DNA of 45,746 nucleotides, from contig JAMPHY010000001.1 of assembly GCA_023663185.1 (NCBI GenBank), forward strand, positions 269,148-314,893, read 5' to 3'. Below the pieces are notes generated by a model. The model worked only from the letters and a program-made list of their open reading frames with translations, ran no database searches and was not told the origin of the DNA. The stretch's first letter is position 1. Each line of letters opens with the position of its first letter. Positions 5,384 to 37,371 of this stretch are shown one piece after another. This stretch comes from Clostridiales bacterium. GTDB taxonomy: Bacteria; Bacillota; Clostridia; Lachnospirales; Lachnospiraceae. Position numbers and translations under genes: made by a program.

Positions 5384-5384
5384 A

Positions 5385-9112: not shown

Positions 9113-9139
9113 ATAGATTTTAAGACATATCAGCGAGAA

Positions 9140-10276: not shown

Positions 10277-10305
10277 AATAGTCCTCCTATTTGAACATTT
10301 TTGAG

Positions 10306-10329: not shown

Positions 10330-10347
10330 AATGTAAGTGACATAGTA

Positions 10348-10376
10348 ATATTATCATTGTGCGGGCGTAATTTCAA
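10348..10376 (-). promoter_or_regulatory. Predicted promoter of BMP operon
   Basis: On the minus strand TTGAAA (10376-10371) and TAATAT (10353-10348) are separated by 17 bases, close to the vegetative sigma factor consensus. They lie about 70 bases upstream of the BMP start. Confidence 0.6.
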
Positions 10377-14566: not shown

Positions 14567-14616
14567 GAACTTTTTATATTATATTAATAAGTGTAATAAG
14601 AATAAGTGCAAAACCC

Positions 14617-14669
14617 ATAATAAATTGATTGCTACGCACTTTGTTTCATGATAAACTATATAAGATAAT
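14617..14669 (+). promoter_or_regulatory. Promoter block shared with the GH26 gene (copy 1)
   Basis: A block of about 53 bp is nearly identical to 15812-15864. It contains AATAAATTGATTG, a variable middle, TTGTTT as -35 (14641-14646) and GATAAT as -10 (14664-14669) with a 17-base spacer; the stretch GATAAACTATATAAGATAAT is identical in both copies. The conserved part extends well upstream of the -35 box, which suggests a common activator or repressor site. Two AATAAGTG direct repeats lie just upstream (14587-14594 and 14601-14608). Confidence 0.72.
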
Positions 14670-14692: not shown

Positions 14693-15688
14693 ATGTACGA
14701 AGCAAACGAAAAAAGATATGAAAAAATGATTTATAGGCGCTGTGGGAAAAGCGGTTTGAAACTGCCTGCGGTATCTCTTGGCTTATGGCAGAATTTCGGG
14801 CATGGCAGCGTTTTTTCTAATATGGAAGAAATGGTTCATACGGCGTTTGATCTAGGTATAACCCACTTTGACCTTGCCAACAATTACGGCAATCCCTATA
14901 ATGGCAGCGCAGAGGAAAATTTTGGCAAAATTCTTGTCGGCATGAAGCAATACCGCGATGAAATGTGCATTTCCACCAAAGCGGGCTATGAAATGTGGCA
15001 AGGACCTTACGGCGACAGGAACGGTTCAAGGAAATATCTTACGGCTTCTCTTGACCAGAGTTTAAAACGCCTGGGGCTTGATTATGTTGACATTTATTAT
15101 CATCATATTTTTGATCCGGGCACTCCGCTTGAAGAGACGGCGCTTGCCCTTGACAATGCAGTAAAGCAGGGCAAAGCCTTGTATGTCGGCATTTCCAATT
15201 ATAATAAGGAACAAACGGCGGAAATAATGAAGATTTTTAAGGAGCTGCACACTCCTTTTATTATCAATCAGCCTTCATATTCGATACTCAATAGATGGAT
15301 AGAGGACGACGGTCTGGATAAATTTGTAGTTGAAAATGGTATCGGACTGGCGGTATTTTCACCATTATATCAGGGGCTTCTTACAGATAAATATTTAAAG
15401 GAAATCCCCGCAGATTCAAGAATAGGCAGAGGCGTATCATGGATAGGCAGTAAGCTTGATGATAAAATGCGACTTCGCCTTAACAAACTGAATGATATTG
15501 CCGCTGCAAGAGGGCAGAAGCTTTCTCAAATGGCGCTTTCATGGGTGCTGAATAATCCTGCGGTAGCGACGGTCCTTATAGGCGCAAGCCGACCGGAGCA
15601 GATAGTTGAAAATGTCAAGTGCATTGAAAAACTTGATTTTACAAAAGAAGAACTTGCGGCTATAAATGATGCGTCAATAAATTCATAA
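14693..15688 (+). CDS. Aldo/keto reductase, glyceraldehyde-3-phosphate reductase type (YghZ-like)
   Basis: This 331-residue NAD(P)H-dependent reductase has the full barrel and resembles the YghZ/L-glyceraldehyde-3-phosphate reductase subgroup. The catalytic residues appear in HFDLANNYGNP (Asp, Tyr), ISTKAGYEMW (Lys) and DYVDIYYHHIFD (His). The C-terminal coenzyme-binding part contains VLIGASRPEQI. The start ATG 14693 follows AAGGAGG at seven bases. It shares a promoter block with the GH26 gene downstream, so it may belong to the same sugar-responsive regulon, possibly reducing a carbonyl compound made during glycan use. That link is inference. Confidence 0.88.
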   Translation: MYEANEKRYEKMIYRRCGKSGLKLPAVSLGLWQNFGHGSVFSNMEEMVHTAFDLGITHFDLANNYGNPYNGSAEENFGKILVGMKQYRDEMCISTKAGYEMWQGPYGDRNGSRKYLTASLDQSLKRLGLDYVDIYYHHIFDPGTPLEETALALDNAVKQGKALYVGISNYNKEQTAEIMKIFKELHTPFIINQPSYSILNRWIEDDGLDKFVVENGIGLAVFSPLYQGLLTDKYLKEIPADSRIGRGVSWIGSKLDDKMRLRLNKLNDIAAARGQKLSQMALSWVLNNPAVATVLIGASRPEQIVENVKCIEKLDFTKEELAAINDASINS

Positions 15689-15811
15689 ATATTTAAGAAG
15701 AATTTTTGCTTATAAATAAATATATCTATTTGTATACTTTTGCAAATAATTTCTAAATCAGGGAGATTTGTGCAGAATGCTCATAAATTTATTTCTTTTT
15801 ATGCAAAAATT

Positions 15812-15864
15812 ACAATAAATTGATTGATTAGCGATTTGTTTTGTGATAAACTATATAAGATAAT
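15812..15864 (+). promoter_or_regulatory. Promoter block of the glycan operon (copy 2)
   Basis: This is the second copy of the block at 14617-14669. The -35 is TTGTTT (15836-15841), the -10 is GATAAT (15859-15864), the spacer is 17 bases and AATAAATTGATTGATTAGCGA lies upstream. It precedes the GH26 gene and is the likely main promoter of the whole glycan operon. No regulator gene is encoded nearby. Confidence 0.75.
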
Positions 15865-15963: not shown

Positions 15964-17595
15964 ATGAAGAAAAGCAATATCGAAAGTTGTAAAGATAATA
16001 ATAGAAGATATTCACACAAATCTACCATCTTATCAGCCTTATCATTATTGCTTGCAGCCTCTACGCTGATTACCGCCTGCAGCAGTCAAGGCGCGGGTGC
16101 CGAAGGCGGTTCGGGAACGAATAGCTCAGACGCGGCAGGAAGTTCAGGCGCAGTAGATAGTTCAGGAACTGCAGGCGTCAGCATATCGGAGCAGGCAAAG
16201 GAACCCGTCGTAATCGGAACATGGCAGGCGTCTGAGGCTGAAACTTTAGGAAACGCACAGCTTTCAGAGGGAGCCGACGGTTCGTACATACATAAAATCG
16301 AGCAGGACGGGGACGGATGCGTATTCACGATAGAGATAGCGGAAGAGGGTTTTTATGATTTGAATTTCATAAGCGCGAGCGAGGGCGGACATAAGGAGAA
16401 TTTTGTGTCTGTGGACGGAGAGAGCATGGGCTCGATAGTGAATGAGGATACAGAGTTTACGGACGCAGTTATAAGAAGGATATATATGGAAGCCGGAACT
16501 CATAAGGTGGAACTTACTAAGAGCTGGGGCTGGATACGCATAAGCGCCCTTGAGGTTATGGAATCGCAGGAGATTGATAAGAGCATTTACGAGGTGACGG
16601 CGAAGTTAAGCAACCCTAACGCCTCCGAGGAAACAAAAAGGCTGTACAGTTATCTTCTGGACATATATGGAGAGAAATTCCTTTCAGGGCAGTATTGCGA
16701 TACAGGGCATAACGGTAAGGAGTTTCAGGTGATAAATAAGGCGACCGGAAAGACTCCGGCGGTTCTGGGGCTGGATTTTATAGAATATACGCCTTCACGG
16801 GTGGAAAACGGCAGTATAGGACATTCGACGGATTTTGCGATTAATTTCTGGAACGATGGCGGCATAGTTACATTCTGCTGGCACTGGAATGCACCTTCTA
16901 AATATCTGACAGGTCAGTGGTACAGCGGCTTCTATAAAGAATATACGAATATCGACTTAGCTAAGATAATGAACGGCGAAGATACGGAAGGCTATGACCT
17001 TCTGATGAAAGATATAGACGCGATAGCAGAGCAGCTTCTTATATTAAAGGAAGCAAAAGTGCCTATACTGTGGAGACCGCTTCATGAAGCGAGCGGCGGC
17101 TGGTTCTGGTGGGGGAACGCCGGAGCGGAAGCATATAAGAAATTATACATACTGCTTTATGAGCGATTGACGAATGAGTATGACTTGGACAACTTAATCT
17201 GGGTTTGGAACGGGCAGGACGCAGAGTGGTATCCGGGAGACGAGTATGTGGATATAGTCAGTGAGGACATATATCCGGGAGAGAAAGTCTATACATCTCA
17301 GGTGGATTCATTTTTAAACGCTGCCAATAACTATGGCACAGAGAGAAAGATGGTTCATCTGTCCGAGAACGGTTGTTTATTTGATCCGGAGCTTGCCAAA
17401 AGAGATGGCGCGATGTGGGGAATGTGGTGCACCTGGCAGGGTGAGTTCGTGGCAAAGAATACGGCGATATTTGCCTTAAGCGAGCAATATACAGAAGAAT
17501 ATATGCTTAAAAAAGTATATGAGGACGAGAACGTAATAACATTGGAAGATTTACCGGATCTGACAACTTATGAGATTCGGGAAGAACTAAAATAA
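15964..17595 (+). CDS. Glycoside hydrolase family 26 lipoprotein with CBM35-like module (beta-mannanase-like)
   Basis: This 543-residue exported enzyme probably cleaves beta-1,4-mannan at the cell surface. The lipobox LITAC puts the lipidated cysteine at residue 39, followed by a Ser/Gly linker. Residues about 80-195 resemble a CBM35-like sugar-binding module (AEEGFYDLNFISAS, AGTHKVELT). The catalytic domain covers about 210-540. WRPLHEASGGWFWWG holds the predicted acid/base Glu375, and MVHLSENG the predicted nucleophile Glu468. VTFCWHWNAP is also typical of GH26. ATG 15964 precedes the signal peptide, but its ribosome binding site is weak; the frame opens further upstream at 15874 inside the leader hairpin region, which is less likely. 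Some GH26 members act on other beta-glycans, so mannan is the best guess. Confidence 0.88.
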   Translation: MKKSNIESCKDNNRRYSHKSTILSALSLLLAASTLITACSSQGAGAEGGSGTNSSDAAGSSGAVDSSGTAGVSISEQAKEPVVIGTWQASEAETLGNAQLSEGADGSYIHKIEQDGDGCVFTIEIAEEGFYDLNFISASEGGHKENFVSVDGESMGSIVNEDTEFTDAVIRRIYMEAGTHKVELTKSWGWIRISALEVMESQEIDKSIYEVTAKLSNPNASEETKRLYSYLLDIYGEKFLSGQYCDTGHNGKEFQVINKATGKTPAVLGLDFIEYTPSRVENGSIGHSTDFAINFWNDGGIVTFCWHWNAPSKYLTGQWYSGFYKEYTNIDLAKIMNGEDTEGYDLLMKDIDAIAEQLLILKEAKVPILWRPLHEASGGWFWWGNAGAEAYKKLYILLYERLTNEYDLDNLIWVWNGQDAEWYPGDEYVDIVSEDIYPGEKVYTSQVDSFLNAANNYGTERKMVHLSENGCLFDPELAKRDGAMWGMWCTWQGEFVAKNTAIFALSEQYTEEYMLKKVYEDENVITLEDLPDLTTYEIREELK

Positions 17596-17609
17596 TCAAA
17601 GGGAGAGGT

Positions 17610-20606
17610 ATGAGTATGAAACGGAGGAAAACCGGTAAAAAAGTCATCGCGCTTGTATTAGCCGCTGCTATGGCGCTATCCTTGTCTCCCGCGACAAGCT
17701 TAGAAAGCTATGCAAAGACTGATATGGCGATGGATGACTTTGATGAAATCATCAGCACGTACAATATCGATGATTCCATTCCAAGTTATAAGAATTATAT
17801 GGCGGAATATGGAACCATGAATAGACCGGCTGGGGCGGTAGAGGTGCCCGCGGGCGGATATGTGCGGTATGAGGAAAGCGACATGGAAGCTGTTCCGGAG
17901 GTGTATACCGATTATGAAGGAATGGAAGGAGAAAGCGTTCTGACAAGCGAAGACTCTTTGATTGAGTTTGAAGTAAACGTACCGGAAAGCGGTTTGTATA
18001 ATCTGTCCGTAGTTTATTATCCGGTAGAGGGTAAGAACTCGGATATTCAGAGAAGCGTTTTCGTAGACGGCGTCCTGCCGTTTCAGGAAATGTCGCTGCT
18101 TACATTCCCAAGAATTTGGACTAATTATGTAGTGGACAGTCATCTTGACGATAACGGCGTCAAAATCATGACATGGGAAAAGGATAATCAGGGTAATGAC
18201 GTAAAGCCTACGACTATGGAAGCTCCGGAGTGGCAGAGCAGATATCTGTATGACAGCGACGGTTATATTACCGAGCCGCTTTCTATCTATTTTGAAGCGG
18301 GGCAACATACTATTTCCATGATTTCTTTGAAAGAGCCTATGCTGATAAACAAGCTTGTGTTAAGCAGCGAGGGCGTTATTAATTCATATGAGCAGGTAAA
18401 AACGGCGTGGGATGCGGCGGGAGCGTCTGATACGGCGGATCAACATATAGTTCTGGAAGGCGAATATGCGACCAAGACATCTTCGCAGATGTTATACCCG
18501 CAGCAGGACCAATCTTCGCCTTCGGTTTCACCGGCGAGCGCAAAGGTGCTTCTTAATAATTCCATCGGCGGCAATTCATGGAGACTTGTCGGACAGTGGA
18601 TAGAGTGGGAATTTGATGTAAGCAGTTCAGGCTACTACAATATTTCCCTTTATGATAAACAGAATTTCAGCAGGGGCGTGCATGTTTCGAGGCGTATAAC
18701 CATCGACGGCGAGGTACCGTTTGAAGAAATGTCGGATTATGCGTTTGAGTACGGACAGAGCTGGAGAGAAGATGTGCTTTCAGATGAAAGCGGCGAAGCG
18801 TATAAGTTCTACTTGGAAGCAGGACACCACACTATTCGTATGGAAGCGGTTCTGGGTGAATTTTCCAATATAGTCGGACTGGTAGAGGAATCTATACAGA
18901 AGCTTAACAGCATATATCGTGAAGTTATCAAAGTTACCGGTGTAAGCCCTGATACCTACCGTGATTATCAGATAGAAGCGATACTGCCTAATCTGACGTC
19001 TGAACTTATAGAGGCGAGGGATATTCTTAACGAGGCTCTTGCAGAGCTTGAGCTGGTAGCGGGCAAGAACAGTGATAAAAAGACTGCGCTTCTTACCATG
19101 AGGGATCAGTTGGACGATTTGATTGAGGATAATGAGTACTTCGTTCGTACAATTACTTCCTATAAGATAAACGTTCGGGCGTTGGGAACATGGATTACAC
19201 AGGTAATCAGCCAGCCGCTTCAGGTTGACAGAATTAACGTATATTCACCGGGAGTAAAGATTAAATACAGCAATAGGTCTTTCTTTGCAGGCGCGGGATT
19301 TGAAATACAGAGACTTTTCTATTCGTTTGTAATTGATTACAACAACATCGGAAGTATTTCAGACGATGGAAGCGGCGAGTCGATTACGCTCTGGATTGGT
19401 TCAGGACGTGACCAGGCGAACGTTATTAAGGCGCTTATAGACGACCATTTTACTAATGAGACCGGAATCGGCGTAAACGTACAGCTTGTAGATATGTCTA
19501 CCTTATTAAAAGCGACTCTGGTAGGAGAAGGACCGGACGTGGCTATACAGGTTGCAAATACCAACGGTATCGCGGGCGCGGTTTTGAATACCGGCAACGA
19601 TACGCCTGTTAATTACGGAATAAGAAATGCGGTTCTGGATTTGGGGCAGTTTTCTGATATAGACGAGGTTATGGCGAGGTTCCCGGAGGCAGCGACATTG
19701 CAGTTTACATTTGACGGAGCGACTTACGCGTTGCCGGAGACGATTACTTATCCGGTTATGTTCTATCGTAAGGACATTTTAGCGGAAATCGGTTTGGATA
19801 TACCTGAGACATGGGACGACGTAAAAGTGGCAATGACAGTGCTTGCTAAGAACCAGATGGAATTCGGTATGCTTGCCACAGAGCAGGTATTTGCCTCTTT
19901 GTTGTATCAGAACGGCGGTTCTTACTATACAGAGAACGGAGCAGCGTCTGCACTGGATTCAGATATTGCAGTAAGCACATTTAAAGATTTCTGCGAATAT
20001 TATACGGACTATAAACTGGATAAAGAAACCAGCGTGCAGGAGCGTTTCCGTACAGGCGAATGCCCGATTATCATATCGGATTATACCGATTATAACAACT
20101 TTGCGGTATCCGCACCGGATATTGCGGGATTATGGAGTTTCACGCAGATACCCGGAACTGTGAAAGAGGACGGAAGCATAGACCATTCAGTAGCAAGTAC
20201 GGGACTTGCAAGTATGATTATGGCGGATACAGAGCACCCTGACGCAAGCTGGGAATTTCTTAAATGGTGGACCAGTGCCGAGACGCAGACCATGTACGGA
20301 CGTGAGATGGAAGGTCTGATGGGTTCCGCGGCGAGAGTACCTACCGCCAACTATGAAGCATTCTTGAATATGCCGTGGCCGGTAGACGATTTTGAAGCTC
20401 TTCAGGAATCTATGAAGTGGGTAAAAGGAATACCTCAGGTGCCGGGCGGTTACTATTCATGGCGTAACGTATACAACGCCTTCTACACCGTGGTAACGGA
20501 AACGGATACGGCGATGCCCAGAGAAGAGCTGATGGATAAAGTTGTATACATAAATGCGGAAATTGATTATAAGCGTGAAGAGCTTGGACTTGACACCGGA
20601 AAATAG
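17610..20606 (+). CDS. Large solute-binding protein with N-terminal lectin-like modules
   Basis: This 998-residue secreted protein has a Sec signal (VIALVLAAAMALSLSP) with likely cleavage after SYA and no lipobox. Two beta-sandwich modules of galactose-binding type occupy about residues 75-255 and 275-435, each showing SGLYNLSV/SGYYNISL and a FEAGQHTI/LEAGHHTI turn. A helical linker follows (about 440-560). From about residue 585 a family 1 extracellular solute-binding domain begins (SITLWIGSGRDQANVIK ... PDVAIQVANTNG ... YALPETITYPVMFYRKDIL). How it attaches to the cell without a lipid anchor is unclear. It precedes two permease genes and probably feeds them. ATG 17610 and ATG 17616 are both possible starts; the second has better spacing from GGAGAGG. 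Confidence 0.85.
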   Translation: MSMKRRKTGKKVIALVLAAAMALSLSPATSLESYAKTDMAMDDFDEIISTYNIDDSIPSYKNYMAEYGTMNRPAGAVEVPAGGYVRYEESDMEAVPEVYTDYEGMEGESVLTSEDSLIEFEVNVPESGLYNLSVVYYPVEGKNSDIQRSVFVDGVLPFQEMSLLTFPRIWTNYVVDSHLDDNGVKIMTWEKDNQGNDVKPTTMEAPEWQSRYLYDSDGYITEPLSIYFEAGQHTISMISLKEPMLINKLVLSSEGVINSYEQVKTAWDAAGASDTADQHIVLEGEYATKTSSQMLYPQQDQSSPSVSPASAKVLLNNSIGGNSWRLVGQWIEWEFDVSSSGYYNISLYDKQNFSRGVHVSRRITIDGEVPFEEMSDYAFEYGQSWREDVLSDESGEAYKFYLEAGHHTIRMEAVLGEFSNIVGLVEESIQKLNSIYREVIKVTGVSPDTYRDYQIEAILPNLTSELIEARDILNEALAELELVAGKNSDKKTALLTMRDQLDDLIEDNEYFVRTITSYKINVRALGTWITQVISQPLQVDRINVYSPGVKIKYSNRSFFAGAGFEIQRLFYSFVIDYNNIGSISDDGSGESITLWIGSGRDQANVIKALIDDHFTNETGIGVNVQLVDMSTLLKATLVGEGPDVAIQVANTNGIAGAVLNTGNDTPVNYGIRNAVLDLGQFSDIDEVMARFPEAATLQFTFDGATYALPETITYPVMFYRKDILAEIGLDIPETWDDVKVAMTVLAKNQMEFGMLATEQVFASLLYQNGGSYYTENGAASALDSDIAVSTFKDFCEYYTDYKLDKETSVQERFRTGECPIIISDYTDYNNFAVSAPDIAGLWSFTQIPGTVKEDGSIDHSVASTGLASMIMADTEHPDASWEFLKWWTSAETQTMYGREMEGLMGSAARVPTANYEAFLNMPWPVDDFEALQESMKWVKGIPQVPGGYYSWRNVYNAFYTVVTETDTAMPREELMDKVVYINAEIDYKREELGLDTGK

Positions 20607-20630
20607 TGAGAAAGGGGCAGAGATATAAAA

Positions 20631-21590
20631 ATGGCAGAAAATGGTAATACCTCTGAGGTAAAAATATCGCAGGAAGCGCTGGATATAGCTAAGAAACAAG
20701 CGACTCTTGGATATCAAATTAAAAGAAACAAAGCATCTTATATGCTGCTTGCACCTTATTTTATAATGTTTTTCTTCTTTACGGTACTTCCGGTTGTAAT
20801 GAGCGTTGCGTTCAGCTTCACCTATTATAATATGCTGGAAATGCCTGAGTTTATAGGGTGGAAGAACTACATAAAGCTGTTTTTGGAAGATGATATCTTC
20901 TTAAAGGCTTTAAAGAATACTATGATACTTGCGGTTATAACGGGACCAATAAGCTATTTCCTGTGTCTGTTATTTGCATGGATTATCAATGAATTTAAAG
21001 GTTGGCTGCGTGCTTTCCTTACACTGATTTTCTATGCGCCGAGTATCTGCGGTAACGCATATGTGGTATGGAACCTGATTCTTTCAGGCGACAGATACGG
21101 ATACTTAAATGGTATCCTGCTTAAGCTTGGAATACTGGACGAAGCAGTAATTTGGATGAAAACCGAAAAGTATGTTCTTCCTTTCCTGATAATCGTTCAG
21201 TTATGGCTGAGTTTGGGAACAGGCTTCCTTTCGTTCATAGCAGGTCTGCAGACGGTTGACAATTCATTATATGAGGCGGCGGCATTGGACGGCGTTAAGA
21301 ATCGCTGGCAGGAGCTGTGGTATGTAACGCTTCCGGCGATGAAGCCGCAGTTGATGTTCGGTGCGGTTATGCAGATTACGCAGGCGTTTGCTATTGCAGA
21401 CGTATCCATACAGCTTGCCGGTAACCCTTCCGTCAACTATTCGGGCGCGACGGTAGTAACTCACCTTATGGATTATGGTACGGTGCGTTTTGAAATGGGT
21501 TACGCCTCAGCGATTGCGACGGTGCTGTTCTTATTGATGGTAGGCAGTAACCTGATAGTACAGAGATTGTTAAGGAGGGTGGGAGAATAA
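20631..21590 (+). CDS. Sugar ABC importer permease (MalF-type), first importer
   Basis: This 319-residue permease has six predicted spans after a cytoplasmic N terminus of about 35 residues. The ATPase-docking EAA loop reads YEAAALDGVKNRWQELWYVTLP, which defines the family. APYFIMFFFFTVLPVVMS is the first span. It is the first of a permease pair and overlaps the next gene by one base. Together with the large binding protein upstream it likely forms an oligosaccharide importer. No ATPase gene is present in this operon. Confidence 0.92.
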   Translation: MAENGNTSEVKISQEALDIAKKQATLGYQIKRNKASYMLLAPYFIMFFFFTVLPVVMSVAFSFTYYNMLEMPEFIGWKNYIKLFLEDDIFLKALKNTMILAVITGPISYFLCLLFAWIINEFKGWLRAFLTLIFYAPSICGNAYVVWNLILSGDRYGYLNGILLKLGILDEAVIWMKTEKYVLPFLIIVQLWLSLGTGFLSFIAGLQTVDNSLYEAAALDGVKNRWQELWYVTLPAMKPQLMFGAVMQITQAFAIADVSIQLAGNPSVNYSGATVVTHLMDYGTVRFEMGYASAIATVLFLLMVGSNLIVQRLLRRVGE

Positions 21591-22492
21591 TGAGCAAACA
21601 AAAAGATTATTTGAAACCCTATAAAAAGAGGCGTTTTTTCAAGCCTAAGCAAAAGAAACTGAATCGTTCAATGGCGGGCAATACGCTGCTGTTTGTGATA
21701 ATGGCATTCTGCGGAGTGGCAATGGTGCTTCCGCTTGTCATGGTAATCAACAACTGCTTAAAGCCGCTTGATGAATTGTATCAGTTCCCGCCTAAGATTT
21801 TTGTAAGAAATCCTACTTTGGAGAACTTCTCAGATTTGTTTACGATGATGAGCGATTCGTGGGTGCCTTTCTCAAGGTACATACTGAATACCATCATAAT
21901 TACGGGCGGCGGCATGGTAGGCCACGTTATTATAGCTTCAATGGCGGCGTATCCGCTTGCAAAGCACAGATTTCCGGGTAAAAATATTCTGTTTCAGATG
22001 GTAGTCCTTTCCATGATGTTCCACTGGACAGTTACCCAGACGCCGCAGTACATGATTATTTCATGGCTGCATATTAATAATAGTTATTGGGCGCTTATCC
22101 TACCGGCATGTTCATTCGGTATGGGGCTTTACCTGATGAAGCAGTTTATGGAGCAGCTTCCGGATTCCCTGATGGAGTCCGCAAGGTTGGATGGTGCAAG
22201 CGAATGGCAGATTTTCTGGAAAATAGTAATGCCTAACGTTAAGCCGGCATGGTTGACGCTTGCTATATTCCAGTTCCAGCAGATGTGGGGCAATACAGGA
22301 AGCACTTTCCTTCGGGACGAAGAATTGAAACCGCTGCAGTATTCATTACAGCAGATAGCGGCAGGCGGTACGGCGAGAGCAGGAGCTGCGGCAGCGGTAA
22401 CGTTCATTATTGCGGCAGTGCCGATAAGCTTCTTCCTGATTTGTCAGAGAAACGTATTGGAAACCATGGCATCGTCAGGAATGAAAGATTAA
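21590..22492 (+). CDS. Sugar ABC importer permease (MalG-type), first importer
   Basis: This 300-residue partner permease of the CUT1 class has a basic N terminus (KPYKKRRFFKPKQKK), then about six spans. Its EAA loop reads ESARLDGASEWQIFWKIVMP. The start codon overlaps the previous stop in TAATG, with GGGTGGGAG just upstream, so translation is coupled. The N-terminal lysine/arginine richness fits the positive-inside rule. Confidence 0.92.
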   Translation: MSKQKDYLKPYKKRRFFKPKQKKLNRSMAGNTLLFVIMAFCGVAMVLPLVMVINNCLKPLDELYQFPPKIFVRNPTLENFSDLFTMMSDSWVPFSRYILNTIIITGGGMVGHVIIASMAAYPLAKHRFPGKNILFQMVVLSMMFHWTVTQTPQYMIISWLHINNSYWALILPACSFGMGLYLMKQFMEQLPDSLMESARLDGASEWQIFWKIVMPNVKPAWLTLAIFQFQQMWGNTGSTFLRDEELKPLQYSLQQIAAGGTARAGAAAAVTFIIAAVPISFFLICQRNVLETMASSGMKD

Positions 22493-22506
22493 CGGGAGGG
22501 AGAGAG

Positions 22507-23994
22507 ATGAAAAAATTCATTCAACTACGAAAAATTACAGCTCTCTGCATGGCAGTTTTTGTATTGGCGCTTATGGCAGGAGAAAACGTATATGCTACTT
22601 CTCTTCCGTATGATACATACAACTACGACTATCGGGAATATATCCACTTCACTCCGGCGCCATATATTCCTGCCGGAACGATAAGTGGTGATAACTTTAC
22701 ATGGAATGGAGAGCCGCTCGGTAAGTTTGTGTCTCCGCAGGATTTATGTCAGGCAGACGACGGCAACATTTATGTAGCGGATACAGGTAATAACCGTATC
22801 GTTGTACTGGACAATGATATGAAAGAAGTGGTAAACGTCATCACTACTTTTGATAATGAAGGCACTGAGGACACGTTTAAACAGCCCTACGGCGTATGTG
22901 TGTCGGAAAGTGGACAGATTTATATCGCTGATTCACAGAACAACCGCGTGGTAGTCTTAAATAAAGACGGAAGCCTCGCAAAAATAGTGGCGAATCCGCA
23001 GTCGGAGAGCTTGGAGGACGGTTATATATTTGTACCTTTAAAGATTGCGGTAGACTACGCGGACAGAATATATGTCATCGCACAGAATATGTTCGAGGGC
23101 ATCATGGTATTTGAGAGCAACGGCAACTTCTCTAGTTTCTTCGGAACGATTGAAGTACAGATTAGTCTGTGGGAGAAATTTTGGAAGAGGCTTGCAACTA
23201 AAGAGGAACGTTCAAAACAGTTGTTATTTATTCCTACTGAGTTCACGGGAATCGATGTAGATCCGGAAGGCTTCATATATTCTTCCAATATTGATCCGAC
23301 CGGAGTACAGGGCGTAAGACGTCTTAATCCCAGAGGTGAGGATGTAATTAAGAAAGGCGAGAACGGCAATGTAGGCGGAGACCTTCAGATAGACGGAAAC
23401 ACTGATTATGCGGGACCATCACAGCTTACGGACGTGGTCTATCGGCAGAACGGCATATATTCATGTCTCGACCGTAAGAGAGGTCGTATATTTACCTACG
23501 ACCATGAAGGAAACCTTCTGTATATCTTCGGTGGTCTGGGCACGCAGGAAGGAACCTTCCAGATGCCTGTAGCAGTTGATGATATCGGCGGCAGGCTGGT
23601 AGTGCTTGACGCAACCGCGGGTACAATCATTTCCTTTGAAGAGACCGAATACGGCAGATTGATAAATGAAGCGGTATCGCTGCGGTTCGACGGCGACGAA
23701 GCCGAGGCGGTAGATTTATGGAGCAGGGTGCTTGAGCTTGATGAGAACAATGAGCTTGCGAATACCGGTATCGGTAAAGCTTATCTGACAGCCGGCGATT
23801 ATGTGCAGGCGATGAAATATCTGGAGCTTGGCATGAACCGCGACTATTACTCAGTAGCATACAGACGTTATCGTAACGGAATGTTGACAGAAAACGCTAG
23901 TTATTTTTTGACGGGCGCGGCGGTGCTGATAGTTGCCTATCTTGTAATAAAGAATGTAAGAAAGAAAAAGAAAGGGGGAGCAGAGAATGAGTAA
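22507..23994 (+). CDS. Secreted NHL-repeat protein with TPR segment and C-terminal membrane anchor
   Basis: This 495-residue protein has a signal peptide (likely cleavage after VYA, residue about 32), NHL beta-propeller repeats (for example GNIYVADTGNNRIVVLD and GQIYIADSQNNRVVVLN at about residues 85-150), more blades to about residue 380, a tetratricopeptide-like helix pair at about 395-450, and a C-terminal span near 466-486 followed by a lysine-rich stop-transfer tail. It is thus an outside-facing propeller held in the membrane. ATG 22507 follows GGGAGGGAG closely; the longer frame runs inside the permease gene. Its role with the importers is unknown: it may scaffold binding proteins or sense glycan. 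Confidence 0.86.
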   Translation: MKKFIQLRKITALCMAVFVLALMAGENVYATSLPYDTYNYDYREYIHFTPAPYIPAGTISGDNFTWNGEPLGKFVSPQDLCQADDGNIYVADTGNNRIVVLDNDMKEVVNVITTFDNEGTEDTFKQPYGVCVSESGQIYIADSQNNRVVVLNKDGSLAKIVANPQSESLEDGYIFVPLKIAVDYADRIYVIAQNMFEGIMVFESNGNFSSFFGTIEVQISLWEKFWKRLATKEERSKQLLFIPTEFTGIDVDPEGFIYSSNIDPTGVQGVRRLNPRGEDVIKKGENGNVGGDLQIDGNTDYAGPSQLTDVVYRQNGIYSCLDRKRGRIFTYDHEGNLLYIFGGLGTQEGTFQMPVAVDDIGGRLVVLDATAGTIISFEETEYGRLINEAVSLRFDGDEAEAVDLWSRVLELDENNELANTGIGKAYLTAGDYVQAMKYLELGMNRDYYSVAYRRYRNGMLTENASYFLTGAAVLIVAYLVIKNVRKKKKGGAENE

Positions 23995-24619
23995 ATATTT
24001 TTCTAAGGAAAAGTGGCAATACATGTTCTATACCATATCTCACCCCATGGACGGCTATTACTGGATACGCCATGCGGAGAGAGGAAGCGTACCCCTTGCG
24101 ATATTGATGGTAATTATCTTTTCTATTTGCTTTACGGCGAATAGGCTGCTAGCAAGCTTTGTAGTCAATGATTTGGATCCGAGGTCGGTTGACAGTTTGT
24201 ATGAGCTTTCGGGCGTACTTGCCTTTTATCTGCTTATCTGTGTCGGCAACTGGTCCATAACCTGCCTGCTTAACGGTGAAGGAAGGCTTAAGGATATCGC
24301 AATAGCTGTAGGATACGCCACAGTACCGATGAGTGTGGTGCTTGCCGCGGCGACTCTAATCAGTCAGGTAATCGCTGATGATGAGGAAGCGTTCTATACG
24401 CTGCTTTTAGTCGTGGGGATAGCATACGGGCTGATTATGATGTTGATAGGAATTATGCAGGTTCATAATTATACGCTTGGCAAGACGCTTTTAACACTGT
24501 TTTTAACCATTGTTGCAATGTTGATTATTGTATTTCTGCTGCTGCTTCTGAGCAACCTGCTTGGCATGGTATTCAATTTCTTCAGAAGCATATATACAGA
24601 GATTATATTCAGGACATAG
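23987..24619 (+). CDS. Yip1-family integral membrane protein
   Basis: This 210-residue membrane protein of the Yip1 domain type has about five spans. The motif SHPMDGYYWIRHAERGS before the first span and GYATVPMSVVLAAA in the core are typical of the bacterial Yip1 families. It overlaps the NHL gene by eight bases, so the two are likely coupled and may form a complex. Bacterial Yip1 proteins have no established function. GGGGGAG lies six bases before the start. Confidence 0.8.
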   Translation: MSKYFSKEKWQYMFYTISHPMDGYYWIRHAERGSVPLAILMVIIFSICFTANRLLASFVVNDLDPRSVDSLYELSGVLAFYLLICVGNWSITCLLNGEGRLKDIAIAVGYATVPMSVVLAAATLISQVIADDEEAFYTLLLVVGIAYGLIMMLIGIMQVHNYTLGKTLLTLFLTIVAMLIIVFLLLLLSNLLGMVFNFFRSIYTEIIFRT

Positions 24620-24629
24620 GAGGCGGAGC

Positions 24630-26990: not shown

Positions 26991-27944
26991 ATGAGTAAGG
27001 CAGAAGTGAAAAATGCTGAAGTAAAAAAGAGAAAAAAAATGACGCTTCTCCAAAAACGCAGTCGGACCGGATATCTGTTCATTCTGCCGTGGTTTATAGG
27101 CTTCATACTGTTCTATGTGAGGTCGCTGTTTATAACCGGTCAGTTTGCTTTTTCCAATCTGACCATAGATGCGATAAACGGTGGATACAATCTGGAATGG
27201 GTAGGACTTGAGAACTTCCGTTATGCCTTTAGGGTACACGGAACGTTCAAGCAGGTGCTTACAAGCTCGGTTATGAATATGCTGATAGACGTGCCGTTAA
27301 TTATCTTTTTCAGTTTGTTTATGGCTATGTTATTAAATAAGAAGTTTCCCGGAAGGGCGATTGTGCGTGCAATCTTCTTCCTGCCGGTAATACTTAATTC
27401 CAGCGCCATATCTTCGGCGATGGAGATGTGCAGTCAGATGATGCAGGGCGGTCTTGCCACTCAAGCGGCGGAAGTAACGGCTACTGCCGGCAGCACGATA
27501 GCGTTTGATATTGATTATTTGATAGATATATTTATGAGCTTAGGGCTTCCGGCTACGATACTGGATTATATCGTGGCGGCGGTAGCAAGAATCAATGATA
27601 TCATCTCAGCATCGGGAGTACAGATAATCATTTTTATCGCTGCATTGCAGTCCATTCCGGGCTCTATGTATGAGGTTGCTAAGATCGAAGGCGCGACAGG
27701 TTATGAGACCTTCTGGAAGGTGACATTCCCGATGGTAATGCCGCACATTATTACCAACGTGGTATATACGATCGTGGACAGCTTCACAGAGAGTCAGGTT
27801 GTAGACCTTGCCTACGAAACGGCGTTTACACAAATGAATTATGGGCTCAGTTCCGTATTCAGTCTCGTCAGCACGGCAATTACCTGCGTAATACTGGTTG
27901 TCGTATGCGGAGCTATACAGAAGCGGACATTCTATTATAACTAG
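26991..27944 (+). CDS. Sugar ABC importer permease (LplB/MalF-type), second importer
   Basis: This 317-residue permease has a charged N terminus, six spans and the EAA loop YEVAKIEGATGYETFWKVTFP. The longer loop between spans (residues 150-190, hydrophobic and Ala/Thr-rich) is notable. The start follows the DUF5696 stop codon directly, with GGAGGGGATATAA in front, so translation is probably coupled. It is the first subunit of the second importer in this operon. Confidence 0.9.
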   Translation: MSKAEVKNAEVKKRKKMTLLQKRSRTGYLFILPWFIGFILFYVRSLFITGQFAFSNLTIDAINGGYNLEWVGLENFRYAFRVHGTFKQVLTSSVMNMLIDVPLIIFFSLFMAMLLNKKFPGRAIVRAIFFLPVILNSSAISSAMEMCSQMMQGGLATQAAEVTATAGSTIAFDIDYLIDIFMSLGLPATILDYIVAAVARINDIISASGVQIIIFIAALQSIPGSMYEVAKIEGATGYETFWKVTFPMVMPHIITNVVYTIVDSFTESQVVDLAYETAFTQMNYGLSSVFSLVSTAITCVILVVVCGAIQKRTFYYN

Positions 27945-27961
27945 GAAGGGAGAGAAAGAGA

Positions 27962-28951
27962 ATGCCAAAAGAAGCAGTTAAAAAGAATTATTTCGCAAGA
28001 ATGAAAGCAGTATTTCAGGATCCCGACCAGACTAAGAGCCTGCTTAACAATATTAAGAACTTTATCTTAACGATTGGAAGGATAGCCATTCTGGTAGGAG
28101 TCGGGTATGTGATTCTTTCCCCGGTAATAGGATTGTTCGTCAATTCCATTTCCTCAAATAAGGACGCATATAACCCAATGGTATTTATCCTGCCACAAGA
28201 GCCTACGTTGGAAAGATACCAGCTTACGATAGAGCGGCTTGGCTATTTTTCCACGATGGGTAAGGACCTGTTATATACGCTTACATTGACAGTATTAGAG
28301 TTGGTTGTTTGCTCTATGGTTGGCTACGGTTTCGCCAGATTTGATTTTCCGCTTAAGAAGATTCTCTTTGGCTGCGTAGTCGTAATGATAGTAATACCTT
28401 CGCATGTCATCATGCTTCCGGTATATATGACTTTTAGAAATTTTGATCCGTTCGGAATGGTAACGGCAATCAGAGGCACCTCAGGTCTGATGGGAACGGT
28501 GGTTCCTATGTATATCATGACGTTATTTGGGTGCGGAGTCAGGTCAGGACTATATATTTATATATTTAATCAGTTCTTCCGCGGGCTGCCTAAGGAAATA
28601 GAAGAGGCGGCGTTAGTGGATGGGGCAGGCGTATGGTACACATATTTCAGAATCATGCTTGTGAACGCCATGCCCGCTGTCATAACGGTAACGGTATTTT
28701 CAGTCGTATGGCAGTTTAATGATACTTTCTTTGCGAAGCTATTTCTGATAAGCCAAGATGTGGTAATCAGTAAGAAGATATCTGCGCTGCAAAGCACTAT
28801 TGCGAATATTGATAAGATTCTGGACGTTACGATTCAGGAGCTTTATCTGGATGCGGGTATCATACTGGTAATATTACCTATCATCATTATCTATTGTGTG
28901 CTGCAGAAATACTTTATAGAAGGCGTGGAGAGAAGCGGTATCGTAGGATAA
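27962..28951 (+). CDS. Sugar ABC importer permease (MalG-type), second importer
   Basis: This 329-residue permease is the partner of the preceding one. It has six spans, an early loop with SPVIGLFVNSISSNKDAYNP, and the EAA loop EEAALVDGAGVWYTYFRIML. GGAAGGGAGAG lies just upstream of the start. It follows the sister gene after 17 bases. The expected partner binding protein is the lipoprotein encoded at 30961-32517. Confidence 0.9.
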   Translation: MPKEAVKKNYFARMKAVFQDPDQTKSLLNNIKNFILTIGRIAILVGVGYVILSPVIGLFVNSISSNKDAYNPMVFILPQEPTLERYQLTIERLGYFSTMGKDLLYTLTLTVLELVVCSMVGYGFARFDFPLKKILFGCVVVMIVIPSHVIMLPVYMTFRNFDPFGMVTAIRGTSGLMGTVVPMYIMTLFGCGVRSGLYIYIFNQFFRGLPKEIEEAALVDGAGVWYTYFRIMLVNAMPAVITVTVFSVVWQFNDTFFAKLFLISQDVVISKKISALQSTIANIDKILDVTIQELYLDAGIILVILPIIIIYCVLQKYFIEGVERSGIVG

Positions 28952-29005
28952 CCTTCACCCTGCCTATCTCATCAACTTTACAATAAAAAAGGAGGAATGA
29001 AAAAG

Positions 29006-30928
29006 TTGAAGACGAAAAAATTATTAGCCTGTCTTATGGCGGGCGCAATGGTACTTTCTCTGACAGCTTGCGGCAATGACTCAGGAACGACGCCTGAACA
29101 GACTGAGACAGAAAATGTCACAGAGACTCAGACGCCAGAAGAGACGCAGCCGGAGGCACCGACAGAGAGTACGGAAGCTGAGACTCCCGCAGTAGTGGAA
29201 GCCAGCGTGGATTTTGAAGATGGCAACTGCGGTTTCGCAGCAGCCTACATGCAGCCCGGCAATGCAGCGGAAATAGAGCTGTCAGTTGCCGACTTTAACG
29301 GCAGCAAGGCTCTTCAGGTGAAGAACCTGAACGGAAATGTTCCGTTTGTAGCTATTGATGTAGCAAGTCTGCTGGGTGCAGACATATCCAAAGTAGCGAA
29401 TATCGAAATGGATATGGGCGTATCATTTGAGAGCGGCAAGTTCAGTGCAGTTTCAGGCGCTATTCTGACATGGAGCGGTGATGATGCGCATGAGACTTCT
29501 ACCGACTGGAGCGTATATATGGAAAACGCTAATCCGAAAACCGCTGCGGTTGCAGTAGACGGATTTGTGGCAGATGCAGGCAATGTTCTTATTGTCAGCC
29601 TGTCAAGTGACGTCAGTGCGGACGCGGGTACAGGAAATGCAACGCTTTATATTGATAACATTCGTTTCTTAGACGCCTCAGGCGCATTAGTAGGCGCGGA
29701 TTCTTCCGTAGCTTTCGTAGCTCCTGACGGATTTGAGAGCAGCGGTCCTGACAGAAGCAATCTTGCAGGTTTGACAAAAGCTGTTGAGTTCACAGGCTTT
29801 GCAACATCAGCAGGCGGCTGGGGACAGGCAGGCTTTGATATGCCTCAGGAAATTATCGACGCCTTAGTACCGGGCTCAGTAGTTGAAATAAACTACACCA
29901 GCACCACAGGCAATATGTGGCTGGTAATGCCTTCAGCGGCAGCAGGCTGGATGAGAGTCGGAGTAGGCGATGCGGACGGCAGCGGACAGGAATATGCTTA
30001 TACTAATAATTCAGGCACTACAGCACAGGTAACATACGAGCAGCTTGCAGCAGTATGCGGCGACGACGTATCTACATGGGGCGCAACCATGCAGTGTGAG
30101 TCAGACGGCGACTGGGAAGTATTCTCAGTTAAAGTAGGTCAGGCAGCTCCTTCATATGCAGGTTTGCAGGGTGCAGTTGAACTGGAAGGCTTCTCTAAGT
30201 CAGCAGGCGGCTGGGCTCAGGACGGTATGGATATGACTCAGGAATTTATCGACGCCTTAGTACCGGGTTCTGTAGTACAGATTGATTACTCAAGCTCAAC
30301 AGACAATATGTGGATAGTAATGCCCGGAGCAACAGCAGGCTGGATGAGAGTCGGAGTAGGCGATGCAGATGGCAGCGGTCAGGGTTACGCATTATGCGAC
30401 GGTTCTAAGTGCTATATCACATATGAGACTCTGGCAGAAATCTGCGGCGACGACGTATCTGCATGGGGTACAACCTTACAGTGTGAGTCTGACGGCGACT
30501 GGGAAGTATATTCAGTTAAAGTTGGAACTCCTATAGAGTTTAAGCCTATCAACCACATTGTAAGTCTGGAAGGCTTCGCTAAAGCAGCAGACGGCTGGGC
30601 TCAGGACGGTATGGATATGACTCAGGAATTTATCGACGCCTTAGTACCGGGTTCAGTAATAACCATCTCTTATGCAAGCGATACCGGCAATATGTGGGTA
30701 GTAATGCCCGGAGCAACGGCAGGCTGGATGAGAGTCGGAGTAGGCGATGCAGACGGAAGCGGACAGGGATATGCAGCATGTGATGGTTCTACCTGTCAGA
30801 TTCCTTATGAGATGATTGCAGAATACTGCGGAGACGACGTATCTGCATGGGGTACAACAATACAGTGTGAGTCAGACGGGGCATGGGAAGTATACAGCAT
30901 GTCAATCGGTCAGTCACCTGTAGAATAA
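29006..30928 (+). CDS. Surface lipoprotein with one beta-sandwich and three tandem modules
   Basis: This protein of 640 residues starts at TTG 29006, ten bases after GGAGG; ATG 28997 is in frame but only two bases from that site. The lipobox LTAC puts the lipidated cysteine at residue 22. A Thr/Glu/Pro-rich linker follows, then a jelly-roll-like domain (about 65-235), then three copies of a module of about 120 residues. Each copy repeats ALVPGSV, the core NMWxVMPxAxAGWMRVGVGD, CGDDVS, and QCESDG(D/A)WEV. Conserved Trp and Asp suggest sugar binding. It has no catalytic motif that I can see. Placed between permeases and a binding protein, it probably captures glycan at the surface. Confidence 0.82.
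   Translation: MKTKKLLACLMAGAMVLSLTACGNDSGTTPEQTETENVTETQTPEETQPEAPTESTEAETPAVVEASVDFEDGNCGFAAAYMQPGNAAEIELSVADFNGSKALQVKNLNGNVPFVAIDVASLLGADISKVANIEMDMGVSFESGKFSAVSGAILTWSGDDAHETSTDWSVYMENANPKTAAVAVDGFVADAGNVLIVSLSSDVSADAGTGNATLYIDNIRFLDASGALVGADSSVAFVAPDGFESSGPDRSNLAGLTKAVEFTGFATSAGGWGQAGFDMPQEIIDALVPGSVVEINYTSTTGNMWLVMPSAAAGWMRVGVGDADGSGQEYAYTNNSGTTAQVTYEQLAAVCGDDVSTWGATMQCESDGDWEVFSVKVGQAAPSYAGLQGAVELEGFSKSAGGWAQDGMDMTQEFIDALVPGSVVQIDYSSSTDNMWIVMPGATAGWMRVGVGDADGSGQGYALCDGSKCYITYETLAEICGDDVSAWGTTLQCESDGDWEVYSVKVGTPIEFKPINHIVSLEGFAKAADGWAQDGMDMTQEFIDALVPGSVITISYASDTGNMWVVMPGATAGWMRVGVGDADGSGQGYAACDGSTCQIPYEMIAEYCGDDVSAWGTTIQCESDGAWEVYSMSIGQSPVE
29762..30913 (+). repeat. Three tandem DNA/protein modules inside the lipoprotein gene
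   Basis: Copies start near 29762, 30161 and 30548, each about 365-385 bp. Copies 2 and 3 are the most alike; long exact stretches such as those around 29945, 30339 and 30723 are shared by all three. The pattern indicates duplication within the gene followed by divergence or gene conversion. Confidence 0.9.
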
Positions 30929-30960
30929 TAGTAAGGAATAAGGAAGGAGAATAAGCAGGA

Positions 30961-32517
30961 ATGAAAAATATGAAGAAATTTTTAGCTCTTGGTCTTGCAG
31001 TAGTTATGACGTTGTCACTTGCGGCATGTGGAAACAGCTCAGGCGGTAACAGCAGCGCTAATACTGATACTAATACCAATACTAACGTCGGCACCGATAC
31101 AAATTCCGACACCGGTAATGCAAGCGCTTCTTCGGCAGCGCCGAGCGATGTATATATCGGTACATGGTGGACAGAGCATACATTTTATGATAGTAACAAT
31201 ACCGACATCTCTGATAAGAGCGATTGGGAGTCATGTCAGGATAAAGAGGGGCAGGACGAGGCTACGCTTAGCCAGAATGCACTCAATCGTCAGTCACATC
31301 AGATGATGTTTGATAACAAGAGTAAGATTGAAGAGAAGTACGGCATTAAATTCTATTTTAATAACCTTACATATTCGGGTTGTAAAGAGTCCATCAATAC
31401 TTCCATTATGGCAGGAAGCCCGGACTGCGATATCTATCTGGTAGAGCCCGGCGTAGGTATTCCTGCACAGCTTAATGGTCTTGCAGTAGACTTAAAGACC
31501 ATTCTTCCGGAAGATGATGATATATTTACTGAGCAGAAGAATGTGTCCTATCTGGATATCGGAGATGGCAAGGCATGTCTGATCGTAAGAGCAGAAGCTC
31601 AGGCTCAGGTTGCATCTACTTATCCGTTGGCATTCAACGTTCAGATGTTAGAGGATAACAATCTGGAAGATCCCAGAGATTTATGGGAGCGCGGCGAGTG
31701 GACATGGGATAAGTTCAATGAATATATGCAGGTACTTACTCAGGATACCGACGGCGACGGTCAGATTGACCAGTATGGATACTGCGGTTATGAAAATGAG
31801 ACTTTATCAGAGCTGATGATGAGCAACGGCACAGGAATCGCTATGGGACCTAACGAGTCATTATCATCTTCTGCTACAGGTGAAGTTTTACAGCAGATTT
31901 ATGATATGTACAACGTAAATAACGTATGTTATCCTTATGATTTCACAGGAACACCCTCAGACAGCATGAGAAATCAGTATACACAGGGTAATATCGGTTT
32001 CTTCCCTTGCGCAGCATGGATTCAGTCAGGTAACGGAGATTATGACTGGGACGGCACGCTTGGAACTACACTTCCTTTTGATGTTGCGTATGTACGCTGG
32101 CCGGTAGGTCCTTCTGGAAACAAAGATACCAATGCTGGAAAGAACGCTCTTGGCGGTGAGTTCTATATGATAGCGGCAGGCGGCAAGAATCCTGAGCAGG
32201 CTTATCATGTACTCTATGATATGTGGAACTGGTATGACGGTGATACATCTATCCGTGACTCTAAAGAGCTGATGAGCTGGTGGTACAGAGTAACCGCAAA
32301 GGATACTGAGCTTCAGGACGCAAACTTCGACGTAATGTTTGAGTGTGGCGCAAAGACAGGTCTTGACTTGTGGGAGAGCTTAGGCGTTCAGTATCAGAGA
32401 GATGGAGACGATAAGAATGCACTTGAGATGCTTATCAATGGCGAGATGACTCCCGCTCAGTTCCAAGAGTCCTTCAAGCAGCAGGTACAAGATGGACTTG
32501 ACGCATACTTCGGTTAA
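30961..32517 (+). CDS. Sugar ABC importer solute-binding lipoprotein, second importer
   Basis: This 518-residue lipoprotein has MKNMKKFLALGLAVVMTLS and lipobox LAAC, with the lipidated cysteine at residue 23, then an Asn/Thr/Asp/Ser-rich linker to about residue 60. The mature part is a family 1 solute-binding fold (PSDVYIGTWWTEHTFY ... MAGSPDCDIYLVEPG ... WERGEWTWDKFNEYM ... DTDGDGQIDQYGYCGY). The latter stretch resembles a calcium-binding DxDxDG loop common in such proteins. AAGGAG lies about ten bases before ATG 30961; ATG 30970 is possible. It ends the operon and is followed by a terminator. Confidence 0.9.
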   Translation: MKNMKKFLALGLAVVMTLSLAACGNSSGGNSSANTDTNTNTNVGTDTNSDTGNASASSAAPSDVYIGTWWTEHTFYDSNNTDISDKSDWESCQDKEGQDEATLSQNALNRQSHQMMFDNKSKIEEKYGIKFYFNNLTYSGCKESINTSIMAGSPDCDIYLVEPGVGIPAQLNGLAVDLKTILPEDDDIFTEQKNVSYLDIGDGKACLIVRAEAQAQVASTYPLAFNVQMLEDNNLEDPRDLWERGEWTWDKFNEYMQVLTQDTDGDGQIDQYGYCGYENETLSELMMSNGTGIAMGPNESLSSSATGEVLQQIYDMYNVNNVCYPYDFTGTPSDSMRNQYTQGNIGFFPCAAWIQSGNGDYDWDGTLGTTLPFDVAYVRWPVGPSGNKDTNAGKNALGGEFYMIAAGGKNPEQAYHVLYDMWNWYDGDTSIRDSKELMSWWYRVTAKDTELQDANFDVMFECGAKTGLDLWESLGVQYQRDGDDKNALEMLINGEMTPAQFQESFKQQVQDGLDAYFG

Positions 32518-36224: not shown

Positions 36225-36298
36225 GTTCGGGCTTAGTGTCGCTGATGGTGGCAATTTAGCGAAAGCAGATTTGTATATAGAGAAAGGAATGATGGGTG

Positions 36299-37291: not shown

Positions 37292-37371
37292 TAGTACGAG
37301 TTTAGACGCAATGAACAAAAACGGGGCTTTAGGAACATTAATAATTACTTATATGAGAGCGGGGATAAGAC

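What the first reader, a model, noticed from the sequence alone, without database searches (positions are those of the whole stretch)
15964..32517. Twin-importer glycan operon built around NHL/TPR, Yip1 and DUF5696 membrane proteins
One same-strand run couples a GH26 lipoprotein, two solute-binding proteins and two permease pairs with three proteins that have no assigned role: a membrane-anchored NHL propeller, a Yip1 protein overlapping it by 8 bp, and a DUF5696 protein. Tight spacing and overlaps say they are co-translated. The model is a surface complex that binds, cuts and hands glycan to two importers. The domain calls come from recalled family motifs; the complex is inference.
Basis: partly seen in the sequence, partly recalled or inferred. 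Interest (0 to 1): 0.7.

Follow-up and report, generated by a model that had tools for sequence, protein, structure and literature searches.

The report
Conserved twin sugar-importer gene module
This bacterium carries a tightly ordered gene set, found with the same parts in many related bacteria, that pairs two sugar importers with three uncharacterised membrane proteins, one of which resembles a sugar-cutting enzyme that has mostly lost its cutting residues.

Summary
It is a conserved module. Of 201 non-redundant full-length DUF5696 loci, Yip1 is directly upstream in 158 of 158 testable, NHL in 157 of 158 (fused to Yip1 in 47), and a permease pair directly downstream in 184 of 185 testable. 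In 200 family genomes NHL and SBPA occur in the same 43. DUF5696 is a membrane-anchored relative of GH129 glycosidases (hhalign E 1.3e-34), but only 5 of 197 keep both catalytic residues; the window keeps the nucleophile Asp and lacks the acid/base Glu. I read the trio as a mostly non-catalytic capture and docking unit on two ATP-driven importers, tuned to beta-mannan in this clade: GH130/epimerase genes lie beside 44 of 68 close loci, 0 of 87 distant ones. Complex and hand-over are inferred. No paper on the module was found in the library searched.

The parts
14607..14669 (+). 63-nt leader repeat, copy 1, before the aldo/keto reductase
   Evidence: 83% identical direct repeat; 50-nt core found only at these two places in the own genome at up to 3 mismatches
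14693..15688 (+). aldo/keto reductase, possibly co-regulated neighbour
   Evidence: PF00248 228 bits; shares the leader repeat
15802..15864 (+). 63-nt leader repeat, copy 2, before the operon: candidate promoter/operator
   Evidence: the core matches without mismatch upstream of the module in L113, a Butyrivibrio MAG
15964..17595 (+). CBM35-GH26 lipoprotein, predicted endo-beta-mannanase
   Evidence: PF02156 238 bits, PF16990 48 bits; best solved relative 3zm8 GH26 endo-beta-1,4-mannanase E 6e-86; lipobox ITAC
17610..20606 (+). SBPA: ~1000-aa solute-binding protein with N-terminal GH115_C-like region
   Evidence: PF01547 at 605-893, PF17829 weak; SBP part matches Lin1841 5ysb E 2e-12
20631..21590 (+). 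permease A1
   Evidence: PF00528; EAA loop in the class consensus
21590..22492 (+). permease A2
   Evidence: PF00528; EAA-type loop in the window protein and class consensus
22507..23994 (+). NHL propeller plus TPR protein with C-terminal membrane helix, body predicted outside
   Evidence: PF01436 and weak TPR; profile matches NHL and TPR structures; helices 10-28 and 463-481 by hydropathy
23987..24619 (+). Yip1-domain membrane protein, about 5 helices
   Evidence: PF04893 43 bits; hydropathy; the only Yip1 match at E 0.001 in this genome
24630..26990 (+). DUF5696: membrane-anchored GH129-like protein; D577 kept, acid/base position is N618
   Evidence: PF18952 624 bits; homology to GH129; catalytic columns; helix 19-37
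26991..27944 (+). permease B1
   Evidence: PF00528; closest solved AlgM1; EAA-type loop
27962..28951 (+). permease B2
   Evidence: PF00528; EAA loop in the class consensus
28997..30928 (+). lipoprotein with three CBM65 stretches, no catalytic domain found by Pfam
   Evidence: PF18259 233 bits, 3 stretches; lipobox LTAC
30961..32517 (+). SBPB: second solute-binding lipoprotein
   Evidence: PF01547 33 bits; matches arabino-oligosaccharide-binding protein 6rjy E 2.6e-8; lipobox LAAC

Best explanation
A conserved glycan-uptake module. SHOWN: two CUT1-type permease pairs and two solute-binding proteins around a conserved core NHL-TPR / Yip1 / DUF5696, with no ATPase in the run. SHOWN by sequence: DUF5696 is a homologue of GH129 glycosidases with an N-terminal membrane helix, and the GH129 catalytic pair is not maintained across the family. 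INFERRED: the GH26 protein cuts beta-mannan at the surface; SBPA's extra domains, the CBM65 lipoprotein and the DUF5696 cleft hold the chain; NHL-TPR and Yip1 form a membrane scaffold (one protein in 47 of 158 loci) that docks DUF5696 onto permease pair B and brings pair A beside it; oligosaccharides pass to both importers, driven by a shared MsmX-like ATPase encoded elsewhere, and are phosphorolysed inside by GH130 enzymes with a 2-epimerase. The core is glycan-neutral; specificity comes from the solute-binding proteins and neighbouring enzymes.
For: Order and adjacency in 201 non-redundant loci, testable ones only: Yip1 158/158, NHL 157/158, NHL+Yip1 fused 47/158, permease pair downstream 184/185, upstream pair 142/158, SBPA upstream 143/158. 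NHL and SBPA in the identical 43 of 200 genomes; DUF5696 at E 1e-40 in those 43 plus G030, whose copy is the short trio-less type (from; L103). Homology to GH129: profile against PDB E 2.5e-11 (5opq) and 6.1e-10 (5wzn); hhalign probability 99.9, E 1.3e-34. N-terminal hydrophobic helix in 183/197 module proteins, 0/9 short relatives. Catalytic columns: Asp 125/197, Glu 35/197 and both in 9/9 short relatives; both in 5/197; at least 18 changes at each site on a quick tree of 142 rows. EAA loop in the consensus of all four permease classes. Mannan link: GH130/epimerase beside 44/68 close loci, 0/87 others; GH130, GH130 and 2-epimerase-family gene side by side in the own genome. Other glycan genes elsewhere.
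Against: No structure could be predicted (tool off), so fold and interfaces rest on sequence. Co-occurrence and fusion show linkage, not a complex with both permease pairs. In other-class genomes only 29 of 43 testable loci have pair A upstream; of 15 such exceptions listed, 6 show SBPA behind pair B and 9 show none in the fetched stretch, so pair A is not obligatory beside the core. All nine genomes then searched hold an SBPA, but in several only away from the trio. The window's clade keeps Asp577 in 52 of 52 aligned sequences, and DagB, a GH129-like enzyme, is active although only that Asp of the NagBb pair is conserved in it (PMC5698469, passages), so a missing Glu alone does not prove inactivity. 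The GH130 test used the window genome's own genes at E 1e-15 and could miss very different GH130s.
Confidence: 0.55

Rival explanations
1. DUF5696 is a live surface glycosidase in this clade, trimming side chains before import, using Asp577 and a different acid.
For: Asp577 is invariant in 52 of 52 aligned close sequences. DagB is active although only Asp435 of the NagBb pair is conserved in it (PMC5698469, passages). Glu683 is kept in 95% and Asp645 in 87% of 197 DUF5696. Five of 197 keep both NagBb-type residues.
Against: 72 of 197 lack even the Asp, so a function shared by the whole family cannot need it. The acid/base position is Asn in 74 and Glu in only 35 of 197. The nine short relatives that keep both residues have no N-terminal membrane helix and no NHL or Yip1 neighbour.
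Confidence: 0.2
2. The trio is an assembly or sensing unit rather than a substrate handler: Yip1 helps insert or cluster the permeases and the NHL propeller senses bound glycan.
For: NHL and Yip1 are fused in 47 of 158 loci, which fits one membrane device. The NHL profile matches PknD and TRIM propellers and TPR structures; such domains are often protein-binding platforms (general knowledge).
Against: It does not explain why a GH129-like protein is the third constant part, nor why other CUT1 importers do without such helpers (general knowledge).
Confidence: 0.2
3. A common glycan locus in which the three genes are passengers with no tie to the importers.
For: No tool result supports it; operons can hold unrelated genes (general knowledge).
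Against: Constant order and matching genome distribution.
Confidence: 0.02

Closest known systems
Roseburia intestinalis mannan-utilisation loci (MULL/MULS; RiGH26, RiMnBP, RiMPP1/2, GH130)
   Same: Surface GH26 mannanase, solute-binding protein with two permeases, GH130 phosphorolysis inside (PMC6385246, passages).
   Different: The passages describe one importer, and a term search of the main text finds no Yip1, NHL or DUF. The window has two permease pairs, the trio and CBM35 rather than CBM27/CBM23; its GH130 genes lie about 220 kb from the operon.
GH129 alpha-N-acetylgalactosaminidase NagBb and GH129-like DagB
   Same: DUF5696 aligns over most of its length, including the nucleophile column.
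   Different: Membrane-anchored; acid/base Glu absent in 162 of 197; the window protein gives no PF11308 or PF12905 match at E 0.001; sits beside NHL/Yip1.
CUT1 ABC importers such as AlgM1M2 and MalFG systems
   Same: Permease and solute-binding families, EAA loops.
   Different: Two pairs with a constant accessory trio; ATPase unlinked in this genome.
Annotated copies: Butyrivibrio fibrisolvens plasmid pNP243 (L002) and Paenibacillus cellulosilyticus plasmid (L003)
   Same: Same module.
   Different: L002 has a GH43 gene in front and no GH26 in the stretch; L003 has NHL and Yip1 in one 719-aa protein and an adjacent UgpC-type ATPase.

Membership tests
CUT1-type ABC sugar importer | solute-binding protein plus two BPD_transp_1 permeases, for each of two sets | tested here: met
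   Pfam; which binding protein serves which pair is inferred from gene order
CUT1-type ABC sugar importer | EAA loop that contacts the ATPase in each permease | tested here: met
   majority consensus of A1, A2 (154 each) and B1, B2 (190 each); window A2 and B1 matched directly, A1 and B2 missed by the simple pattern
CUT1-type ABC sugar importer | MalK-type ATPase in the same operon | tested here: not met
   none in the run; OB_MalK matches unlinked; a UgpC-like ATPase in 1 of 218 fetched stretches. A shared unlinked ATPase is usual in Bacillota (general knowledge), so this does not exclude membership
GH129 glycoside hydrolase (DUF5696) | homologous barrel domain | tested here: met
   hhalign E 1.3e-34 against nine GH129-like proteins; PDB profile hits. 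Sequence only, no model
GH129 glycoside hydrolase (DUF5696) | catalytic Asp (NagBb Asp435) | tested here: met
   Asp577 in the window; 125 of 197 in the family
GH129 glycoside hydrolase (DUF5696) | acid/base Glu (NagBb Glu478; role recalled, position counted) | tested here: not met
   Asn618 in the window; Glu in 35 of 197. Hence not filed as GH129
GH129 glycoside hydrolase (DUF5696) | hydrolytic activity | not testable with these tools
   needs purified protein
Bacillota beta-mannan utilisation locus | extracellular GH26 mannanase with oligosaccharide importer | tested here: met
   activity itself not tested
Bacillota beta-mannan utilisation locus | GH130 and 2-epimerase genes | tested here: met
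   present in the genome about 220 kb from the operon; in the same stretch as the module in 44 of 68 close relatives
Bacillota beta-mannan utilisation locus | induction by mannan | not testable with these tools
   no expression data

The most novel reading that the evidence does not exclude
The module is a Gram-positive surface polysaccharide-docking importer: a catalytically retired GH129 barrel and an NHL-TPR/Yip1 scaffold physically join two importers into one machine that feeds long glycan chains, cut on the spot, into both permease pairs, and swapping solute-binding proteins re-targets the same chassis to mannan, xylan, arabinan or pectin.
Probability: 0.22. Interest if true: 0.85.

Novelty: new variant of a known kind. 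Interest (0 to 1): 0.62.

Why it matters
How Gram-positive gut and rumen bacteria, which lack the SusCD system (general knowledge), hold a polysaccharide next to their importers is open. A constant module, present in 43 of 200 sampled family genomes and in other classes of the phylum, with a former glycosidase among its constant parts, is a concrete, testable candidate. It also gives DUF5696 a superfamily and suggests that the glycan can be predicted from the clade.

Tried and rejected
Passenger-gene reading: rejected by order and co-occurrence. One permease pair being uncoupled: not supported, EAA loops are in all class consensuses. DUF5696 as an unknown fold: replaced by GH129-like. A shared operator with the GH130 genes through the 63-nt leader repeat: not found; the core occurs only before the reductase and the operon; a first pattern with a wrong spacer found nothing. 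Two NHL genes without a listed DUF5696 (G173:C25, G173:C31) do have one; one search had not scored all candidates. Two listed DUF5696 lack a listed NHL: G173:C18 (L083) has a fused NHL+Yip1; G161:C36 (L069) is a real exception, with histidine-kinase and response-regulator genes in front of its Yip1. Literature: searches showed no paper on the trio or DUF5696 in the open-licence library (18, 73, 74 gave no paper; the others gave listings). Of all listings I opened passages of five papers. A term search of PMC6344614, PMC13278490 and PMC6385246 found no Yip1 or NHL. One search (Asp-435/Glu-478) found nothing, so Glu478's role is recalled. One search failed on a mistyped start and was rerun. One search took the 2-epimerase for GH130 and one search printed nothing; one search is the corrected count.

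Limits of the counts: they are sequences, not independent events. The 80 named loci are the best 80 of 476 found with a query close to the window. Rows with too short a flank were left out (158 of 201 testable upstream, 185 downstream). The catalytic table uses 197 of 201, those with complete ORFs. Ten short or partial loci (L103-L112) and the two G016 fragments are not among the 208 full-length genes. Flank scans used 141 of 143 listed flank genes (two of L063 left out). Neighbour labels come from profiles seeded with the window's proteins. The tree is quick, with long branches, and cannot tell gain from loss.
Full report
WHAT IS THERE. The + strand from 15964 to 32517 holds eleven genes with gaps of -8 to +45 bp: CBM35-GH26 lipoprotein, SBPA, permeases A1 and A2, NHL-TPR, Yip1, DUF5696, permeases B1 and B2, a lipoprotein with three CBM65 stretches, and SBPB. 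The NHL gene starts at 22507 and ends at 23994; Yip1 starts at 23987, so the 8-bp overlap is real. By hydropathy the NHL protein has a signal helix and a C-terminal helix, Yip1 about five helices and DUF5696 one N-terminal helix, so the NHL/TPR and DUF5696 bodies should lie outside (inference). The only Rfam match at gathering scores in the window is a tRNA-Thr at 45611. The genome appears to be Lachnospiraceae: the best named match is a Butyrivibrio MAG with 95% identical DUF5696 (L113).

IS IT MORE THAN CHANCE. I took DUF5696 genes from 200 family genomes, 398 phylum genomes (all 55 places outside the own genome fetched), a named scan and two plasmids, and labelled neighbours with profiles seeded by the window. 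One search holds 208 full-length genes in 218 stretches; reduces these to 201 at 97% identity. Of the 158 with at least 7.5 kb upstream, Yip1 is the labelled neighbour in 158 and NHL is present in 157, fused to Yip1 in 47; a permease pair and SBPA are upstream in 142 and 143. Of 185 with at least 2.5 kb downstream, 184 have two permeases directly behind. By group the upstream pair is in 55 of 57 (family), 58 of 58 (named) and 29 of 43 (phylum). One search lists 15 phylum stretches without it: in 6 SBPA is seen behind pair B (for example L247 and L262) and in 9 no SBPA is seen in the fetched stretch (for example L231, L251). Nine genomes, seven of them with such exceptions, were searched for SBPA: all nine have it, though in G529 the only match is the copy behind the trio. 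Read from the NHL side, holds 73 distinct NHL genes in 43 of 200 genomes; 70 have a listed DUF5696 within 5 kb, two more were shown to have one, and G051:C171 was not examined but lies near an SBPA. NHL and SBPA are in the same 43 of 200 genomes, and DUF5696 at E 1e-40 or better is in those 43 plus G030, whose copy (L103) is the short, trio-less type. Exceptions: L069 has no NHL in front of Yip1, and L102 has its permeases upstream only.

WHAT DUF5696 IS. Of the short relatives without NHL/Yip1 (L103-L112), seven were scanned with Pfam: besides DUF5696 all seven match GH101 and DUF6259 and five of seven GH129, some below the curated cut-offs. A profile of nine of them finds NagBb, a GH129 enzyme, at E 1.9e-268. 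The module DUF5696 profile itself finds DagB 5opq at E 2.5e-11 and NagBb 5wzn at 6.1e-10, and hhalign between the two alignments gives probability 99.9 and E 1.3e-34 over 483 columns. In that alignment window Asp577 falls on the Asp and Asn618 on the Glu of the relatives; counted along these are NagBb Asp435 and Glu478. That Asp435 is a NagBb catalytic residue is from passages of PMC5698469; the acid/base role of Glu478 is recalled. A separate MAFFT alignment puts the same columns together: Asp in 125 and Glu in 35 of 197 DUF5696, both in 9 of 9 short relatives; in DUF5696 both together in 5, Asp only 120, Glu only 30, neither 42. An N-terminal hydrophobic helix is found in 183 of 197 module proteins and 0 of 9 short ones. 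On a quick tree of 142 rows each site changes at least 18 times. Against a simple dead-enzyme reading: Asp577 is invariant in the 52 close sequences aligned, and DagB works although only the Asp of the NagBb pair is conserved in it. So the family as a whole cannot depend on GH129 chemistry, but this clade might still have activity.

IMPORTERS. The EAA loop is in the majority consensus of all four permease classes, so both pairs should be ATP-driven. No ATPase is in the run. The genome has two OB_MalK matches, the nearer 36 kb before the window, and only 1 of 218 stretches, the Paenibacillus one that gave the query, has a UgpC-like ATPase at E 1e-40. A shared MsmX-type ATPase is usual in Bacillota (general knowledge). 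Against 57 named loci the permeases A are most conserved (81% and 83% median identity to the window) and DUF5696 least (56%).

SUBSTRATE. GH26 is closest to solved beta-mannanases. The genome has two GH130 genes and a GlcNAc_2-epimerase-family gene in a row about 220 kb from the operon. With these three as queries at E 1e-15, 44 of 68 module loci whose DUF5696 is at least 35% identical to the window's, and which have 8 kb downstream, carry at least one in the fetched stretch; 0 of 87 more distant loci do. Of 141 flank genes scanned in family loci, 16 of 69 in the first batch match DUF624 and 7 of 69 GH130; GH43 (2 of 69, 7 of 72), GH3 (4, 4), arabinofuranosidase C-terminal domain (3, 4) and GH67 (2 of 69) also appear, and pectate lyase and GH106 lie beside L231. 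So the same core seems to serve several glycans (inference from neighbours).

REGULATION LEAD. A 63-nt repeat, 83% identical, precedes both the reductase and the operon. Its core occurs nowhere else in the genome at up to 3 mismatches and is found once in L113, upstream of that module.

MECHANISM AND VERDICT. Best reading: a capture and docking core on two importers, with GH26 cutting. Linkage, homology and loss of the catalytic pair are shown by sequence; the complex, glycan binding and hand-over are inferred. I rate it a new variant of a known kind (CUT1-based glycan loci). No paper on the trio or DUF5696 was found in the open-licence library, which lacks most subscription journals.

Noticed in passing
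14607-14669 and 15802-15864: A 63-nt direct repeat precedes both the aldo/keto reductase and the operon; its core occurs only twice in the genome and once in L113 upstream of the module. Likely duplicated promoter/operator.
   Followed up: partly
L103 8676-10358, L104 8627-10381: Short proteins without NHL/Yip1 that score highest to DUF5696 among the non-module relatives fetched and keep both GH129 catalytic residues: possible link between enzyme and module protein.
   Followed up: partly
L225, L226, L228, L230, L258: The only five of 197 module DUF5696 proteins with both catalytic residues; four come from three large genomes of one genus code.
   Followed up: no
window 28997-30928: Lipoprotein with three CBM65 stretches and no catalytic domain found, between permease B2 and SBPB; genes labelled alike by profile lie at this place in several close relatives (not checked with Pfam).
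   Followed up: partly
window 36296-40059: Response regulator followed by a hybrid kinase with a PocR sensory domain, downstream of the operon.
   Followed up: no
window 32758-33744 and 33805-34245: A gene weakly like Transposase_31/YhgA (20.3 bits, cut-off 21) and a small DUF4430 protein follow the operon.
   Followed up: no
window 4403-10357, - strand: Bmp-type binding protein, double ATPase and two BPD_transp_2 permeases (nucleoside-type importer), followed by a family 2 glycosyltransferase gene.
   Followed up: no
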